Source of the DNA: Planosporangium thailandense
Lineage (GTDB): Bacteria > Actinomycetota > Actinomycetes > Mycobacteriales > Micromonosporaceae
Length of the DNA stretch: 64,000 bases
NCBI RefSeq assembly: GCF_011947195.1
Contig: NZ_JAATVY010000006.1
Span: 186,001-250,000 of the forward strand
Direction of reading: 5' to 3'
Part shown: piece by piece, positions 12,791-20,690 of the stretch
How positions within the stretch are numbered: position 1 is the stretch's first letter
How the letters are laid out: the number at the start of each line of letters is the position of its first letter
Notes under the pieces: generated by a model
Databases searched by the model: none
What the model saw: the letters and a program-made list of their open reading frames with translations, nothing else
Told to the model about the DNA's origin: nothing
Made by a program: the position numbers and the translations under genes

Positions 12791-14248
12791 TCAGTCGGGC
12801 CGGGCACGTCTGCGCCGCGCTGCCCACACGGCGAGCGCGACCAGGGCGGCCACCTCGACGACCGCGCCCGGCCAGCGGGTGAGGATGGCGAGGTTGTGGC
12901 TGTCCGGAACGACGACGACGCTGAGCACCGCCACCGCCACGGCGGTGGCGCGCAGGAGCCGGGGGCCGGCCGCCGCCGCGAGCACCGCGGCCGGGGCCGC
13001 CGCGTACCAGGGGTAGACGACCGGCGCCAGCACTACCGTCACGGCCAGCGCCAGGCCCGCCGCGACGGTCACGGACCGGGTACCGCCGGAGCGCACGGCC
13101 CGCCACCAGAGCGCCACGAGCGTCACGGGCAGTACGACGTACAGGGCGCCCGCGCGCACCGCGTCCTCCGTCGCGGGGATCGCGCCGTGAACGCCGGCCA
13201 GCGACAGCGGCCCCGCGGCGACAGCGCCGAGCACGGCGCCGACGGCGCTGGGCGGTGACATCCATGACACCGGCTGGTGGGACACGGGCAGTGCGGTCAC
13301 CCACCCGGCGTCCAACCCGGCGACCACCGTGACGGCGGCGAAGACCGCCACCGCGGCGCCCCCGGCGGAGAGCACCGCTCGCGGCCACCGGCGGCCCGAC
13401 GCCACGGCGAGCAGCACGGCGAACGGCAGCGCGACGACGGCGGTCGCCTTGACCGCGACCGCGAGCCCCAGCAGGGCGCCGGCGGCGACGGCCCGGCCCC
13501 GCGCGGCGACCGCGAGGCCGCCGACGACGAGCCCGACGGTAAGCGCGTCGTGATGCGCGCCGCCGACCAGATGGACCAGCACGACCGGGTTGGCCAGGCC
13601 CAGCCAGAGCGCGACGGCCGGGTCCGCGCCGCAGCGCCGTGCGAGCGCCGGTACGCCGGCCGCGAGCCCGGCCAGGCCGGCGAGCGCGGCCAGGCGCAGC
13701 GCCGCGACGGTGGCCAGCAGCGAGCCGTGCGCAGCCGCGGCGCTGACGAGAACGGCGAGCGGACCGTACGGCGCGGGCTGGTCGCGCCAGATCGGCGGGA
13801 TCGCCGTCAGCCACCGGCACGGCAGGTCCGCCGGCCCCACCCGGTACGGGTCCGCACCGGCGAGGTAGATCTGGCCCTGGCAGGCGTAGGAGTAGACGTC
13901 GTGACTGGCCAGCGGAGCGGCGGCGAGCAGTGGTAGCGCCCACAGCACCGCGGTGACCAGCACGGCGCGTGGGGTGACCCGACCCTCGCGCGCCGCCCGG
14001 CCCACCGCCCACCAGGCGCCGATCAGGACGGCCGCCGCGGTCACCCACAGGGCGAGGCCGATCCCGTGCCAGACCGGCCCGGGCAGCAGGGGCGCCGCCG
14101 GCGTCAGCTGACCCGGATCCTGCCAGGGCAGCGCCCCGACGGTCCACGACAGCAGGGCCATGAGCGCCGTGGCGGCCAGTCCGGCGTACCGCGCCGACGT
14201 GGACCACCCCGTACTCGTCGCGACCGGAGTCGCCGTCGATGCGCTCAC
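12791..14248 (-). CDS. mptB: Polyprenol-phosphomannose-dependent alpha-1,6-mannosyltransferase, MptB-like
   Basis: GT-C fold integral membrane glycosyltransferase that would extend a lipid-linked mannan (lipomannan-type glycolipid) on the outer face, using polyprenyl-phosphate-mannose. The 485 residues hold about 12 hydrophobic segments. Family marks are SHDVYSYACQGQIYLAG (Asp-containing extracytoplasmic loop), DPYRVGPADL, DQPAPYGPL and VVYPWYAAAP. The GTG start at 14248 overlaps the stop of the upstream phosphatase as GTGA, so the two are probably translated together. The exact acceptor in this organism is unknown. Confidence 0.85.
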   Translation of the reverse strand: MSASTATPVATSTGWSTSARYAGLAATALMALLSWTVGALPWQDPGQLTPAAPLLPGPVWHGIGLALWVTAAAVLIGAWWAVGRAAREGRVTPRAVLVTAVLWALPLLAAAPLASHDVYSYACQGQIYLAGADPYRVGPADLPCRWLTAIPPIWRDQPAPYGPLAVLVSAAAAHGSLLATVAALRLAALAGLAGLAAGVPALARRCGADPAVALWLGLANPVVLVHLVGGAHHDALTVGLVVGGLAVAARGRAVAAGALLGLAVAVKATAVVALPFAVLLAVASGRRWPRAVLSAGGAAVAVFAAVTVVAGLDAGWVTALPVSHQPVSWMSPPSAVGAVLGAVAAGPLSLAGVHGAIPATEDAVRAGALYVVLPVTLVALWWRAVRSGGTRSVTVAAGLALAVTVVLAPVVYPWYAAAPAAVLAAAAGPRLLRATAVAVAVLSVVVVPDSHNLAILTRWPGAVVEVAALVALAVWAARRRRARPD

Positions 14249-15057
14249 GGCCGGTCGAGCAGCAGGTCCCGGAGCGCGTCGAGGATGTCGTCGGGGACGC
14301 CCAGGCCGTCGCGCACGTACCGGTCCATGCCGCCGTACCCGCGCTCGACCTCGGCGTACGCCGCCGCCAGGTACTCCGGACGCACCTCCAGCAGCGGCAG
14401 CAGGTGCTCCGGGTGCACCACCCGCCCCTTGGCCCGCATCGCGTTCATGATCGATACGTTGGTCGCCCGCGAGTAGTCGTTGGTCGCGAGGTAATCGGCG
14501 ACGATCGTGTCCCGGTCCACCCCGAGGACTTCGAACAGGATCGCCGTCAGCCAGCCGGTACGGTCCTTGCCGGCGCTGCAGTGGAACAACAGCGGCTCGC
14601 CGGCGGCCTCGCCGATCGTCCGCACCGCCGCACCGAACCCGGCCCTGGCCTGGGCGTCGTTGGCCATCCAGCGGTAGATCTCGACCATCGCACCGGGCGA
14701 GCCGTCGACCGAGGCGGCCGGCGCCGCCACCGCGACGTCGTGGCCCATGAGAACCGCCGACACGTACGTGAACACCGGGTGCTCCGGGTCGAACACCGGG
14801 ATGTGGCGGATGCGGGGCGCCGGGTCGGCGGGCAGGCGATCGGCCGGCGCCGCGTCGATCTCGCTGCGGTCCCGCAGGTCGACGACCCAGGCGAGCTTGC
14901 GCTCCGCCAACGTCGCCACGTCGCCGTCGGTGAGGCGGCCCAGCGCGGTGGAGCGGCTCAGCACGCCCGCGCGCACCCGCGCGCCGCCGGCGGTCACGAT
15001 ACCCCCCAGGTCGCGGGCGTTCGGCGCGCCGATCAGACCCAGTCCACGCTCGAGCAT
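14245..15057 (-). CDS. Tyrosine-protein phosphatase (DSP-like, Y_phosphatase3 type)
   Basis: Cys-dependent phosphatase of the type seen in MptpB/PtpB-like bacterial enzymes, which act on phosphotyrosine or phosphoinositides. The 270-residue product starts with the family's NARDLGGIVTAGG and has the P-loop HCSAGKDRTG with nucleophilic Cys about 160 and the Arg of CX5R six residues later. GGAGGTGGC precedes ATG 15057. No signal peptide is seen, so it is cytoplasmic or exported non-classically. It is coupled to the MptB-like gene, so a role near envelope glycolipid synthesis is inferred. Confidence 0.92.
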   Translation of the reverse strand: MLERGLGLIGAPNARDLGGIVTAGGARVRAGVLSRSTALGRLTDGDVATLAERKLAWVVDLRDRSEIDAAPADRLPADPAPRIRHIPVFDPEHPVFTYVSAVLMGHDVAVAAPAASVDGSPGAMVEIYRWMANDAQARAGFGAAVRTIGEAAGEPLLFHCSAGKDRTGWLTAILFEVLGVDRDTIVADYLATNDYSRATNVSIMNAMRAKGRVVHPEHLLPLLEVRPEYLAAAYAEVERGYGGMDRYVRDGLGVPDDILDALRDLLLDRP

Positions 15058-15173
15058 GCCACCTCCGTTACGTCGTTCCCGTGAGAGACAGCCTGCCTCA
15101 TGTGGCGCGCGACCGTGCGGCCGGCCGGATGTCCGCAGGCCGGCCGGGCCACCTCCGGCCGGCGCGGCGCCGG

Positions 15174-16214
15174 TCAGTCCGAGACCCGGTCCCGGCCGGG
15201 GGACGGGGGTTGCGGTGCGGCAGCCGGCCCGACGAGCTCCCGGCGAGCGACCCGGCGGGACTTGATGAGGCTGGCCACCGCGGTGATCGCGAGTGTACCG
15301 AGGATGGCGGCCAGCGAGAGCTCGATCGAGATCTCGGGCGCCCACGCCACCGGCTCCCCACCGTTGATGAACGGGACGTCGTTGTTGTGCAGTGCCTCCA
15401 GGAACAGCTTGACCCCGATGAAGCCGAGCACGACCGACAGCCCCGCCGACAGGTAGACCATTCGATTGAGAAGATCGCCGAGCAGGAAGTACAGCTGCCG
15501 CAGCCCCATCAGGGCGAACACGTTCGCCGTGAAGACGAGGTAGGGCTCCTGGGTGAGGCCGAAGATGGCGGGGATCGAGTCGAGAGCGAAGATCAGGTCG
15601 GTCGTACCGATCGCGATCATCACGACGAGCATCGGGGTCAGTAGCCGCCGACCGGCCACCACCATCGTCATGTGAGCGTTGTTGTAGCGGTCGGACAGCG
15701 GCAGCACCCGCCGGACCCACCGGATGAACGCGTTCTCCTTGAACTCCTCGTCGTCGCCGTCGCCACCCGCCGCGAGCCTGACGGCCGTGTACACGAGGAA
15801 CGCCCCGAACAGGTAGAACACCCACTCGAAGCGGCTGATCGCGGCCGCCCCGACGGCGATGAACGCGCCCCGCATCAGCAGCGCCAGCCCGATGCCCACC
15901 AGCAGCACCTTCTGCTGAGCGCTGCGGGGCACGGCGAAGCGGGCCATGATGATGACGAAGACGAAGAGGTTGTCCACCGAAAGGCTGTACTCGGTGATCC
16001 AGCCGGCGAAGAACTGGCCGGCGTACTCGCCGCCCTGGAACGCCAACAGGCCCATGCCGAACGCGACCGCCAGGCCCACGTAGAACAGGATCCAGAGCAC
16101 GCACTCGCGGATCGAGGGCTCGTGCGGACGGCGGCCGACGACAGCGAGGTCGAACAGCAGTAACGCGCAGAGGCCGACGAGACTGATCGCCCAGACCGAA
16201 CCCGCGACGTTCAT
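15174..16214 (-). CDS. terC: TerC family membrane protein (probable manganese efflux)
   Basis: Multi-pass membrane protein of the TerC/Alx family, whose members export Mn2+ or load it onto exoenzymes. The 346 residues contain about eight to nine transmembrane segments with the acidic family motifs YSLSVDNLFVF (about residues 70-80) and FALDSIPAIFG, which supply metal-binding Asp/Asn residues. GGAGG lies ahead of ATG 16214. The long leader carries an apparent yybP-ykoY riboswitch, which senses Mn2+ elsewhere; this supports a manganese role over the older tellurite label. Confidence 0.93.
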   Translation of the reverse strand: MNVAGSVWAISLVGLCALLLFDLAVVGRRPHEPSIRECVLWILFYVGLAVAFGMGLLAFQGGEYAGQFFAGWITEYSLSVDNLFVFVIIMARFAVPRSAQQKVLLVGIGLALLMRGAFIAVGAAAISRFEWVFYLFGAFLVYTAVRLAAGGDGDDEEFKENAFIRWVRRVLPLSDRYNNAHMTMVVAGRRLLTPMLVVMIAIGTTDLIFALDSIPAIFGLTQEPYLVFTANVFALMGLRQLYFLLGDLLNRMVYLSAGLSVVLGFIGVKLFLEALHNNDVPFINGGEPVAWAPEISIELSLAAILGTLAITAVASLIKSRRVARRELVGPAAAPQPPSPGRDRVSD

Positions 16215-16231
16215 ACAGAAATCCTCCGGTA

Positions 16232-16281
16232 GGCACGCCACACCGGCGGCACCGGGCAGCGCCCGGTGTGCGGCGGTGTGC
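16232..16281 (-). promoter_or_regulatory. Candidate expression platform of the terC leader
   Basis: Between aptamer and ribosome site the minus-strand transcript can fold a nested stem: the inner CACCGGGC-GCT-GCCCGGTG hairpin lies within outer GCACACC/GGTGTG pairing. It ends about 10 bases before the GGAGG of terC. No T tract is seen, so it may work on translation or by Rho rather than as a simple terminator. Confidence 0.5.
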
Positions 16282-16292
16282 AGTTGTGACTC

Positions 16293-16408
16293 CGGAGGTC
16301 TCTCCCGCCGCCGTTGGTCGGCGACCGGCGACGCCGGGCGACCGGTGGCCCGAAGGCCGAGGCAGCCGTGTTGACGACGTCGTCGCGAGGGAATACTCCC
16401 CTCCCTGC
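16293..16408 (-). ncRNA. yybP-ykoY (manganese) riboswitch
   Basis: Read on the minus strand, the leader shows the three conserved blocks of this aptamer in order: GGGGAGTA after a GGAGG stem strand (near 16404-16394), then GTCGTCAACA (16378-16369), and finally GAGACC (16302-16297) followed by CTCC closing the P1 stem with GGAG. GC-rich helices fill the middle. The class binds Mn2+ and turns on exporter genes. Its position directly upstream of terC is a common genomic context. Boundaries are approximate and no covariance model was run. Confidence 0.85.
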
Positions 16409-16576
16409 TTCACCCATTCTCCCCTATCGCCTTCCGCGTACGCGACCGGCCGGGTAGATCATGACGCGCGTGTCGCGTGTCGGCCGTCACCGACGGGTCC
16501 CGCCCGCCAACACCGCGCGCCGGACCGCATCACCCCGGCGCGGCGCGGCCGCCGTCGACGTGGCAGGCTGGCCGGC

Positions 16577-16870
16577 ATGGTGATCGAGGTGGCGTTGATC
16601 GACGTGCAAGAAGGTCGCGAAGACGATTTCGCAGCCGCTTACGCCAAGGCGAAGTCCCTGGTGGAGACCACGCCGGGCTGCCGTTCGGTGCGTATGACCC
16701 GGGGCGTGGAGACGCCCACCCGGTTCGTCCTGCTCGTCGAGTGGGACTCCGTCGAGGCCCATATCGACAACTTCCGCGCCTCCGACCGCTTCACCGAGTG
16801 GCGCGCGATGATCGGCCCCTACTTCGACGGCGCGCCCCGCGTGGAGCACTTCGTCGACCTGCCGGCCTGA
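16577..16870 (+). CDS. ABM-domain protein (antibiotic biosynthesis monooxygenase fold)
   Basis: A 97-residue ferredoxin-like dimeric alpha/beta barrel. The ABM pattern is visible: VIEVALIDVQEGREDDFAAAYA, a central GCRSVRMTRGVE, FVLLVEWDSVEAH and a C-terminal HFVDL. Members are quinol or haem monooxygenases or simple ligand binders, so a specific reaction is not claimed. ATG 16577 (or GTG 16580) lacks a ribosome site; CAGGCT just upstream may mark a leaderless transcript. Confidence 0.85.
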   Translation: MVIEVALIDVQEGREDDFAAAYAKAKSLVETTPGCRSVRMTRGVETPTRFVLLVEWDSVEAHIDNFRASDRFTEWRAMIGPYFDGAPRVEHFVDLPA

Positions 16871-16886
16871 TCGCCGGACCCTGGCC

Positions 16887-17495
16887 TCACATGGGCCCCG
16901 GGTAGGTTGCGACGATCGTGGCCATCTCCGGGGTCACCCGCACCTCGGACGCGAGAAGCTGGGGATGGCGCAGCCAGTGCAGCCGGGCCGCGTCGGGCTC
17001 GTCGCCGTAGCGCGGTGGCCAGCCGTCGATGGGCGTGAAGTCGTCGATGACGACCACACCGCCCGGGCGCAGCCACTCAGCCGGCTCCAGTGCCTGCCCG
17101 CCGCCCTTGCCCTGGCCGCCGCCGTCGAGCACCAGCAGGTCGAACGGGCCGAACCCGGCCAGGTCGGTCCAGTCGCCGGTGACGACCTCCACGTTGGGCG
17201 CGCCATCGAACACGGCGCGGGCGGCCGCGGCGGCCGTCGGATCGCGCTCCACGCTGACCAGGCGTGCGTCGGGGCCGGCCCCGCTGGCGAGCCACGCCAG
17301 GCCGACGCCGAAACCGGTACCGGTCTCGCCGATGACGCCCGGACCGACCCCGGCCGCCAGCAGTCGCAGCAGTTCGCCCTGCGCGGGCAGGCAGGACAGC
17401 GCGAAGCCGCTGTCCCGCGCGGCCGCGACGGCGGCAGCCACCAGCGGCGGAAGGTCCACCCGGCCGCCGTAGGCAGCGGTTCCATTTAGCGTCAT
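16887..17495 (-). CDS. SAM-dependent O-methyltransferase-like protein
   Basis: A 202-residue class I methyltransferase. Motif I appears as GVIGETGTGFGVGLAWLA (about 54-70), the acidic end of strand 2 as LVSVERDP, motif II as DLLVLDGGGQGKGGG, and a late strand as GVVVIDDF. Overall it resembles the catechol/caffeoyl-CoA O-methyltransferase branch, but the substrate is unknown. It lies 17 bp downstream of uvrB on the same strand? No: uvrB ends at 17513 and this gene starts at 17495, so it follows uvrB closely and is probably co-transcribed. Confidence 0.85.
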   Translation of the reverse strand: MTLNGTAAYGGRVDLPPLVAAAVAAARDSGFALSCLPAQGELLRLLAAGVGPGVIGETGTGFGVGLAWLASGAGPDARLVSVERDPTAAAAARAVFDGAPNVEVVTGDWTDLAGFGPFDLLVLDGGGQGKGGGQALEPAEWLRPGGVVVIDDFTPIDGWPPRYGDEPDAARLHWLRHPQLLASEVRVTPEMATIVATYPGPM

Positions 17496-20096: not shown

Positions 20097-20690
20097 TCAT
20101 GCCGGCGCCAGGCGCTCCCGCCACACCTCGTCGACTCTGTGGTCCAACTCCTCAAGGGTGCCGTCGTTGACGATCACGATGTCGGCGGCGGCCCGCCGCT
20201 GCTCGTCGGTGGCCTGTGCGCGGATCCTGGCGACCGCCTCGTCCCGCGTCATCCCCCGGTCGCCCATCAGCCGGGCGATGCGCGTCTCCTCGTCGGCGAG
20301 CACGACGATGACGATCTCGTACGCCGGCGCGAGACCGCTCTCGACGAGCAGCGGTACGTCGTTGACCACGACGGCGTCCGGCGGCGCGGCCGCGACCAGT
20401 TCCGCGGTCCGCGCGCGTACCCGGGGGTGGATGATCGCTTCGAGGCGGCGGCGCGCGGCCTCGTCGTTGAACACCCGGCGCGCGAGTGCCGCCCGGTCGA
20501 GCGAGCCGTCCGCGGCCAGCACTTCCGGCCCGAACACGGCGACCACCTCGGCCAGCCCCGCAGAGCCGGCGGCGACGGCCTCCCGAGCCAGCCGGTCGGC
20601 GTCGATCACGACCGCGCCGAGCGTTGCGAGGCGGCCCGCGACCGCGCTCTTGCCGGCGCCTATCCCGCCGGTCAGTCCCACCATCAGCAC
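20097..20690 (-). CDS. coaE: Dephospho-CoA kinase
   Basis: Last step of coenzyme A synthesis: ATP-dependent phosphorylation of dephospho-CoA at the 3'-hydroxyl. The 197-residue product has the P-loop GLTGGIGAGKS (residues about 5-15), the DADRLARE substrate motif, HPRVRARTAEL, and VPLLVESGLA. GTG 20690 gives the family's usual V-L-x-V-G-L start; an ATG at 20684 is the alternative. No C-terminal UPF0157 extension, which some actinobacteria carry. It lies downstream of rpsA. Confidence 0.95.
   Translation of the reverse strand: MLMVGLTGGIGAGKSAVAGRLATLGAVVIDADRLAREAVAAGSAGLAEVVAVFGPEVLAADGSLDRAALARRVFNDEAARRRLEAIIHPRVRARTAELVAAAPPDAVVVNDVPLLVESGLAPAYEIVIVVLADEETRIARLMGDRGMTRDEAVARIRAQATDEQRRAAADIVIVNDGTLEELDHRVDEVWRERLAPA

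What the first reader, a model, noticed from the sequence alone, without database searches (positions are those of the whole stretch)
16232..16408. Manganese riboswitch of terC with an unusual expression platform
The terC leader carries the GGGGAGTA, GTCGTCA and GAGACC blocks of the yybP-ykoY aptamer in correct order with a closing P1 stem, followed by a nested GC-rich hairpin that ends just before the ribosome site. If real, this TerC is a Mn2+-responsive exporter in this lineage, and the platform lacks a T tract, so the switch may be translational or Rho-dependent.
Basis: partly seen in the sequence, partly recalled or inferred. Interest (0 to 1): 0.72.

Follow-up and report, generated by a model that had tools for sequence, protein, structure and literature searches.

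The report
Manganese riboswitch ahead of terC
The stretch of RNA in front of this bacterium's terC gene is very probably a manganese sensor of a known kind that uncovers the ribosome's landing site when manganese is plentiful; the standard RNA-family model misses it, but related bacteria carry it widely.

Summary
The terC leader (window 16405-16214, minus) has the yybP-ykoY (Mn2+) core: P1.1, loop L1, P1.2, P3.1, loop L3 with the invariant adenosine, P3.2, P4. Rfam RF00080 finds nothing here, but it also misses the E. coli alx leader and scores E. coli mntP below its own cut-off, so its silence refutes little. A covariance model built only from other families finds the leader at 73 bits (E 1.4e-11 in the genome) and E. 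coli alx at 30.1 bits. In 96 distinct rows 26 of 31 pairs change on both sides. In a phylum sample, 57 of 64 elements precede cation-exporter families (TerC, P-type ATPase, GDT1, CaCA). The platform is a strand swap: the P1.1 3' strand CCUCCGG can pair instead with the Shine-Dalgarno CCGGAGG, and terC relatives keep this by compensatory change. Translational ON control by Mn2+ is the best reading; no ligand was tested. Helix P2 is absent, as in 126 of 130 aligned relatives and E. coli alx. Verdict: a new member of a known riboswitch family, in a subgroup that Rfam's current model overlooks; the platform is not unusual among terC relatives. A second copy precedes a cation-exchanger gene elsewhere in the genome.

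The parts
15174..16214 (-). terC: TerC/Alx family metal-homeostasis membrane protein, 346 aa, ATG at 16214
   Evidence: PF03741 165.9 bits; TIGR03718 R_switched_Alx 371.8 bits, cut-off 246.4; the only PF03741 match in the genome at E <= 0.001
16294..16404 (-). Mn2+ riboswitch aptamer, P1.1 to P1.1', three-way junction without P2
   Evidence: R1 88.7 bits (the window is in R1's training set); held-out model R2 73 bits, matching 16292-16405; covariation
16400..16404 (-). P1.1 5' strand GGAGG
   Evidence: invariant in the 17 of A1; 4 of 5 pairs change on both sides over 96 distinct rows
16394..16399 (-). loop L1 5' side GGAGUA (3' side GAGA 16302-16299)
   Evidence: GGAGUA in 127 of 130 model-aligned rows, GCAGUA in 3
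16390..16393 (-). P1.2 5' strand UUCC, pairs with GGGA 16306-16303
   Evidence: 3 of 4 pairs with changes on both sides
16375..16385 (-). P3.1 5' strand, pairs with 16336-16326
   Evidence: 9 of 11 pairs with changes on both sides, 97.4% of cells paired
16368..16376 (-). loop L3 core CGUCAACAC (its first two bases also counted in P3.1); A16372 is the proposed counterpart of the Mn-sensing adenosine (A41 of L. lactis, A48 of X. oryzae)
   Evidence: that A is present in 129 of 129 readable rows of 130; role by analogy with PMC6754395 and PMC9190785 (passages)
16307..16325 (-). P4 hairpin
   Evidence: 7 of 7 pairs with changes on both sides
16292..16298 (-). switch strand CCUCCGG: P1.1 3' strand and, alternatively, anti-Shine-Dalgarno
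   Evidence: fold with the SD paired to it at probability 1.0 per base; own pairing beats permuted pairing, 0 of 5000 permutations as good
16239..16280 (-). nested GC-rich hairpin between the switch strand and the SD
   Evidence: folds; seen in four distinct leaders of the lineage, with weak covariation: 3 of the 29 pairs of the whole platform change on both sides
16223..16229 (-). CCGGAGG: Shine-Dalgarno and partner of the switch strand, 8 nt before ATG
   Evidence: pairing
16411..16426 (-). tentative -10 region (TAGGGGAGAATGGGTG) just upstream of P1.1
   Evidence: a similar block (GGGGAGAATGG, GGGGACAATGG) in L001, L002, L003 and GAGAATGG in L018, by eye; the sigma-70-type scan lists no promoter here; not tested as a promoter

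Best explanation
The terC leader is a Mn2+-sensing yybP-ykoY riboswitch that turns terC ON at the level of translation. Inferred steps: as the leader is transcribed the aptamer folds; Mn2+ bound between L1 and L3 (contacting A16372) stabilises P1.1, which holds CCUCC 16298-16294 on GGAGG 16404-16400; the Shine-Dalgarno made about 65 nt later stays free and TerC, a likely Mn2+ exporter, is made. Without Mn2+, P1.1 gives way and the same strand (CCUCCGG 16298-16292) pairs with CCGGAGG 16229-16223, hiding the ribosome site; the nested hairpin 16280-16239 brings the two strands together. Because the hidden form is much more stable on paper (17.6 kcal/mol), the choice is probably made during transcription rather than at equilibrium. 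Shown here: the aptamer anatomy, its conservation and covariation, homology to E. coli alx, the cation-export character of the downstream genes in relatives, and conserved P1.1-strand/SD complementarity in terC leaders. Not shown: Mn2+ binding, and any effect on expression.
For: Held-out model R2 (11 leaders, none from the window's family) finds the window, 73 bits, E 1.4e-11 genome-wide, and the E. coli alx leader, 30.1 bits, E 4.2e-4; R1 finds alx at 33.8 bits, E 1.5e-5. Covariation: 15 of 29 pairs with both sides changed in 17 leaders aligned without a structure; 26 of 31 in 96 distinct rows, 96.2% paired against 75.1% in shuffles and 37-51% when slid (that alignment is fitted to the model). 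L1 and the L3 adenosine are near-invariant. Of 64 R1 hits in 296 genomes of the phylum, 57 precede TerC (42), P-type ATPase (11), GDT1 (3) or CaCA exchanger (1), and one more a CaCA match below its cut-off. Compensatory changes between the P1.1 3' strand and the SD: CCUUCGG/CCGAAGG, CCUCGAAC/GUUCGAGG, CCUCAGG/CCUGAGG, CCUCCAGC/GCUGGAGG; own pairing -15.08 kcal/mol against -12.62 permuted, 0 of 5000 permutations as good, over 76 distinct TerC leaders. Seven or more contiguous pairs before a start codon: 56 of 86 TerC leaders, against 9.4 of 86 on average with shuffled tails. The SD is sequestered in the predicted fold of 71 of 73 leaders chosen for having the complementarity. No terminator-like site.
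Against: RF00080 finds nothing. R1 does not find E. coli mntP at E <= 1; of the 11 RF00080 hits in the phylum sample it finds one at 34.3 bits, eight at only 15.8-24.7 bits and misses two. The hidden form is 17.6 kcal/mol below the P1.1 form, so equilibrium switching looks impossible; secondary-structure energies leave out L1/L3 docking and Mn2+. Even with P1.1 forced, the SD is only partly free. 30 of 86 TerC leaders lack 7 contiguous pairs, and 5 of 7 P-type, 6 of 6 GDT1 and 5 of 5 CaCA leaders do too, the genome's own second copy included. The leaders in the permutation test are related. Nested-hairpin covariation is weak and the covariation term there is nil. R1 searches recover mostly what resembles its training set, all of it from terC leaders.
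Confidence: 0.8

Rival explanations
1. Same Mn2+ aptamer, but the output is transcriptional: when P1.1 does not form, the untranslated leader is open to Rho-dependent termination, or a pause-dependent event decides elongation; SD pairing is secondary.
For: No terminator-like site, so Rho is open; the GDT1 and CaCA copies examined lack the SD swap (0 of 6 and 0 of 5), so the aptamer works with other platforms in the same lineage.
Against: The anti-SD/SD complementarity is kept by compensatory change in terC leaders, which Rho control alone would not demand.
Confidence: 0.12
2. The leader senses something else first of all: pH, as first reported for E. coli alx, or another divalent ion such as Ca2+.
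For: The E. coli alx leader, which both models find, was described as a pH-responsive element acting through RNA polymerase pausing (PMC3874183, passages). A review says the S. pneumoniae mgtA member forms with Ca2+ or Mn2+ (PMC9495176, passage).
Against: The Mn-site residues are kept (L1 GGAGUA, the L3 adenosine), and GDT1/MneA and TerC proteins are reported as Mn exporters, Mn-induced, in Vibrio (PMC13274385, abstract and passages).
Confidence: 0.07
3. Not a riboswitch: chance similarity in GC-rich sequence, or a coding constraint (a 722-aa open frame spans 16413-14245).
For: GC-rich shuffles fold well too (131-nt piece z = -1.08); an open frame covers the leader.
Against: Compensatory covariation, genome-wide E of 1.4e-11 with a held-out model and synteny with exporter genes; the length differences between leaders are not multiples of three (for example 113, 112, 107 and 98 nt).
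Confidence: 0.01

Closest known systems
E. coli alx leader (pH-responsive element / Mn2+ riboswitch), TerC-family gene Alx
   Same: GGGGAGUA, CGUCAUUAC and GAGACC blocks, only 5 nt between P1.2 and P3.1 in the model alignment, so no P2; gene annotated as Mn(2+) exporter Alx. Reported as translational control with an inactive form and an active form that exposes the ribosome site, chosen during transcription (PMC3874183, passages)
   Different: Sequence mostly diverged (33.8 bits with R1); alx switching is described through hairpins S, C and D and pausing, whereas here a direct P1.1 3'-strand/SD swap is read from sequence
RF00080 Mn2+ riboswitch (yybP-ykoY), four-way junction type (L. lactis yoaB, X. 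oryzae)
   Same: P1.1, SRL-like L1, P1.2, P3.1, L3 with sensing adenosine, P3.2; ON switch through stabilised P1.1 (PMC6754395, PMC9190785, passages)
   Different: No P2, so a three-way junction; translational rather than antitermination platform; not found by the Rfam model
C. glutamicum terC (cg2157) leader, listed as RF00080 with an observed 5' UTR
   Same: Actinobacterial terC under yybP-ykoY, bit score 49.13 taken by its authors from Rfam (PMC3890552, passage)
   Different: Another genus; I did not fetch its sequence, so its junction type was not compared
S. pneumoniae mgtA yybP-ykoY riboswitch
   Same: Described as having a three-way junction (PMC9495176, passage)
   Different: Described as acting on transcription and as binding Ca2+ more tightly than Mn2+; the primary paper is not held

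Membership tests
yybP-ykoY Mn2+ riboswitch (RF00080) | score above the Rfam gathering threshold (45 bits) | tested here: not met
   No hit in the window at gathering, at E <= 10 on 16200-16430 or genome-wide at E <= 0.001. The yardstick also fails on E. coli alx and mntP (41.6 < 45), so I treat this as a limit of the model and not as a defining feature of the RNA
yybP-ykoY Mn2+ riboswitch (RF00080) | P1.1 with L1 GGAGUA opposite GAGA | tested here: met
   16404-16394 and 16302-16294; L1 in 127 of 130 rows; P1.1 covaries
yybP-ykoY Mn2+ riboswitch (RF00080) | P3.1 closed by a C-G pair next to L3, with [U/A]-C-A carrying the sensing adenosine | tested here: met
   C16376-G16375-U16374-C16373-A16372; the A in 129 of 129 readable rows of 130. 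Register set by covariation of P3.1; equivalence to A41/A48 by analogy
yybP-ykoY Mn2+ riboswitch (RF00080) | four-way junction with P2 | tested here: not met
   Junction of 4 nt between P1.2 and P3.1; a 15-17 nt hairpin there in only 4 of 130 rows (the search model itself has no P2). The 11 RF00080 hits have 24-37 nt in the stretch parsed between L1 and L3; ten fold a hairpin there at -9 kcal/mol or better, L029 only -2.2. E. coli alx lacks P2 as well and a three-way member is in print, so I do not take P2 as defining
yybP-ykoY Mn2+ riboswitch (RF00080) | upstream of Mn/metal exporter genes | tested here: met
   terC here; TerC, P-type ATPase, GDT1 or CaCA behind 57 of 64 hits in the phylum sample, 58 with one match below cut-off
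yybP-ykoY Mn2+ riboswitch (RF00080) | binds Mn2+ and changes expression | not testable with these tools
   needs probing and reporters
translational ON switch by SD release | mutually exclusive pairing of the P1.1 3' strand with the P1.1 5' strand or the SD, kept by compensatory change | tested here: met
   (terC copies; not seen in the GDT1 or CaCA copies examined)
transcription-terminator platform | GC-rich hairpin followed by T tract | tested here: not met
   0 terminator-like sites in 15900-17000

The most novel reading that the evidence does not exclude
Actinomycetota carry a large, P2-less three-way-junction subclass of Mn2+ riboswitches that the current Rfam model overlooks. Its terC members switch by a direct swap of one P1.1 strand between aptamer and Shine-Dalgarno, under kinetic control, and its regulon reaches beyond exporters to M50-CBS membrane proteases and unnamed small membrane proteins that may be new Mn2+-stress factors.
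Probability: 0.45. Interest if true: 0.45.

Novelty: new member of a known kind. Interest (0 to 1): 0.32.

Why it matters
It puts TerC of this lineage among the probably Mn2+-controlled exporters and shows a practical gap: in a sample of 296 genomes of the phylum the current RF00080 model finds matches in 10 (E <= 0.001, one over its cut-off), while a model built from these leaders finds matches in 55 others (E <= 0.01). A reseeded family would annotate many Mn2+ regulons in actinomycetes and point to unnamed proteins within them.

Tried and rejected
RF00080 as the judge: rejected after it failed on E. coli alx and mntP. Reading GUCGUCA so that its second GUC closes P3.1 (as the RF00080 consensus would suggest): rejected because the base before UCG covaries with the base after CGG (columns 47/104: GC 9, GU 4, CG 2, AU 2), which fixes the first UC as part of P3.1. 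Third R1 hit in the genome (23.8 bits, E 0.21): its surroundings read as coding sequence by eye, taken as noise. Window 20424-20496 plus strand, 14.1 bits, E 1: noise. RF00080 hits in the family (6 of 101 at E <= 1, none over cut-off): the sequences shown (L019-L025) did not look like leaders by eye; not pursued. RF02975 at 17.3 bits against 37.8: taken as chance. For the three small proteins and for the protein behind L052, Pfam gave nothing; the genes behind L104, L116 and L118 were not identified. Paper searches. Those on actinobacterial or three-way Mn2+ riboswitches gave the C. glutamicum listing and the mgtA passage; those pairing 'manganese riboswitch' with 'actinobacteria' and 'Mn2+ riboswitch' with 'Actinomycetota' each returned one paper, on C. 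difficile, of which I saw the listing only. Subscription journals are largely absent from this library.

Full report
What is there. On the minus strand the region before terC reads GGAGG-GGAGUA ... CGUCAACAC ... GAGA-CCUCCGG, then a GC-rich hairpin, CCGGAGG and, 8 nt on, ATG at 16214. The gene is TerC (PF03741; TIGR03718) and is the only PF03741 match at E <= 0.001 in the 7.0 Mb genome.

The Rfam test and why it does not decide. RF00080 gives no match at its gathering score over the window, none at E <= 10 on 16200-16430 and none in the genome at E <= 0.001. As controls I ran two E. coli leaders reported as Mn2+ riboswitches (PMC9603457, start of the abstract in the listing): mntP scores 41.6, below the cut-off of 45, and alx is not found at E <= 10. 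In the alignment printed the model's structure line pairs nothing in P1. Its silence is therefore weak evidence against membership.

Relatives. A protein search returned 18 terC loci. Of these, 16 have the full pattern directly before terC; L008 has the element before an upstream terC (71.5 bits); in L004 it was not found. RNAalifold on the window and the 16, aligned without structure, gives P1.1, P1.2, P3.1, P3.2 and P4, 29 pairs, 15 with changes on both sides. The model R1 built from these 17 finds E. coli alx at 33.8 bits (E 1.5e-5). Of the 11 RF00080 hits in the phylum sample (L029-L039) it finds L029, the one over Rfam's cut-off, at 34.3 bits, eight more at 15.8-24.7 bits (E 0.0024 to 0.37) and misses L034 and L037; it does not find mntP at E <= 1. 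A model without the window's family, R2 (11 leaders; L018 also left out), finds the window at 73 bits, E 1.4e-11 in the genome, alx at 30.1 and L029 at 29.4 bits.

Spread. R1 matches 88 of 101 genomes of the family and 55 of 296 of the phylum at E <= 0.01. RF00080 matches 10 of the 296 at E <= 0.001, one over the cut-off; comparing the two lists, no genome is in both. In 98 R1 hits (96 distinct rows: the loci given by the two searches plus 40 further places that I chose, mostly second copies; the window included) 26 of 31 pairs change on both sides and 96.2% of cells pair, against 75.1% in shuffles and 37-51% in slid versions. That alignment is fitted to the model, so the unfitted one search is the fairer evidence.

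Regulon. I had the sequence behind all 64 hits listed by the phylum search (30 loci, two, 32). By BLAST against four reference proteins and three small ones, 42 precede TerC, 11 a P-type ATPase, 2 GDT1 and 1 a CaCA exchanger; 8 were unassigned. Pfam then made one of these GDT1 (L163, 113.6 bits), one a Na_Ca_ex match below its cut-off (L169, 20.7 against 24.9) and two M50 peptidases with CBS domains (L141, L152); three have little sequence left before a contig end (L040, L060, L154: 20, 8 and 195 nt); the protein behind L052 has no Pfam match. GDT1/MneA and TerC are reported as Mn exporters behind predicted yybP-ykoY riboswitches in Vibrio, induced by Mn (PMC13274385, abstract and passages). 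The window's genome has a second copy at C50:37770-37865 (54.1 bits) before a CaCA exchanger (PF01699).

Core residues and junction. Over 130 model-aligned rows L1 is GGAGUA in 127 and GCAGUA in 3; L3 carries xG[U/A/C]CA in 129 of 129 readable rows. By analogy with A41 of L. lactis and A48 of X. oryzae (passages) A16372 is the proposed Mn-sensing adenosine. The base two before it sorts by gene: A in 15 of 15 rows before GDT1 or CaCA, U in 101 of 101 before TerC or P-type ATPase. The stretch between P1.2 and P3.1 is 2-10 nt in 126 rows and 15-17 nt, a P2-like hairpin, in 4. All rows were found with a P2-less model, so this is no census. Of the 11 RF00080 hits, ten fold a clear hairpin between L1 and L3 (-9 kcal/mol or better) and L029 a weak one (-2.2). 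E. coli alx leaves 5 nt between P1.2 and P3.1, and a review describes the S. pneumoniae mgtA member as a three-way junction (PMC9495176, passage), so a missing P2 is not new.

Expression platform. In the fold of the whole leader the SD CCGGAGG 16229-16223 pairs fully with CCUCCGG 16298-16292, the P1.1 3' strand. When P1.1 is forced, the SD bases become only partly free (unpaired probabilities 0.03-0.52); the rest of the freeing is assumed. Across relatives the two strands change together: CCUUCGG/CCGAAGG in L048 (P-type ATPase) and L061, CCUCGAAC/GUUCGAGG in L105, L125 and L127, CCUCAGG/CCUGAGG in L113, CCUCCAGC/GCUGGAGG in L053. With SD windows placed by TerC start codons and not by pairing, own pairing averages -15.08 kcal/mol against -12.62 permuted, 0 of 5000 permutations as good, 76 distinct leaders; related leaders make this less than independent, and some start sites were probably misplaced (for example L105, L106, L125, L127). 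Contiguous pairing of 7 or more (G-U allowed) before a start codon is seen in 56 of 86 TerC leaders, 55 of them within 130 nt, against 9.4 of 86 on average with shuffled tails; in 2 of 7 P-type, 0 of 6 GDT1 and 0 of 5 CaCA leaders. The swap belongs to terC copies and not to every user of the aptamer.

The nested hairpin. Among 73 TerC leaders kept for having the complementarity, the SD ends more than 45 nt after the aptamer in 28, all of them from the window's family, and 35 nt or less in 43. In the window the hidden form is 17.6 kcal/mol better than the P1.1 form, the largest gap of the 73 (median 10.2). If the switch works, the decision must fall while the RNA is being made, as reported for alx (PMC3874183, passages).

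Verdict. A Mn2+ riboswitch of the yybP-ykoY kind controlling terC, most likely by translation. It is a new member of a known kind. Mn2+ binding and the sign of the response are inferred.

Noticed in passing
L070 (28 nt after the aptamer), L096 (69 nt), L135 (92 nt): R1-type leaders with the SD complementarity (9, 9 and 11 contiguous pairs) precede small proteins of 68-89 aa with one apparent membrane segment (by eye) and a shared LRGT/LRDT-KPSERA-like stretch; Pfam finds no family. Possibly unnamed Mn2+-stress proteins.
   Followed up: partly
L141 and L152: R1-type leaders precede M50 membrane peptidases with CBS domains, a gene type other than the exporter families behind most hits.
   Followed up: partly
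G000:C50:37770-37865 (L098 1871-1966 minus): Second copy of the element in the window's genome, before a Na+/Ca2+-exchanger-family gene (PF01699), without an evident SD swap.
   Followed up: yes
rows of A3 and A4: The L3 base two before the sensing adenosine sorts perfectly by downstream gene: A in 15 of 15 GDT1/CaCA rows (X. oryzae-like), U in 101 of 101 TerC/P-type rows (L. lactis-like), suggesting two aptamer lineages or tunings.
   Followed up: partly
L008 284-388 and 1501-2376: Two terC genes in tandem in Xylanimonas; R1 finds the element only before the first.
   Followed up: partly
Rfam RF00080, release 15: The 177-position model pairs nothing in P1 in its printed structure line, does not find E. 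coli alx at E <= 10 and scores E. coli mntP below its own cut-off.
   Followed up: yes
window 14245-16413 minus: A 722-aa open frame runs through the leader and across terC in another frame; its first part looks like a GC-rich chance frame, its last part resembles a tyrosine-phosphatase-like protein by eye.
   Followed up: no
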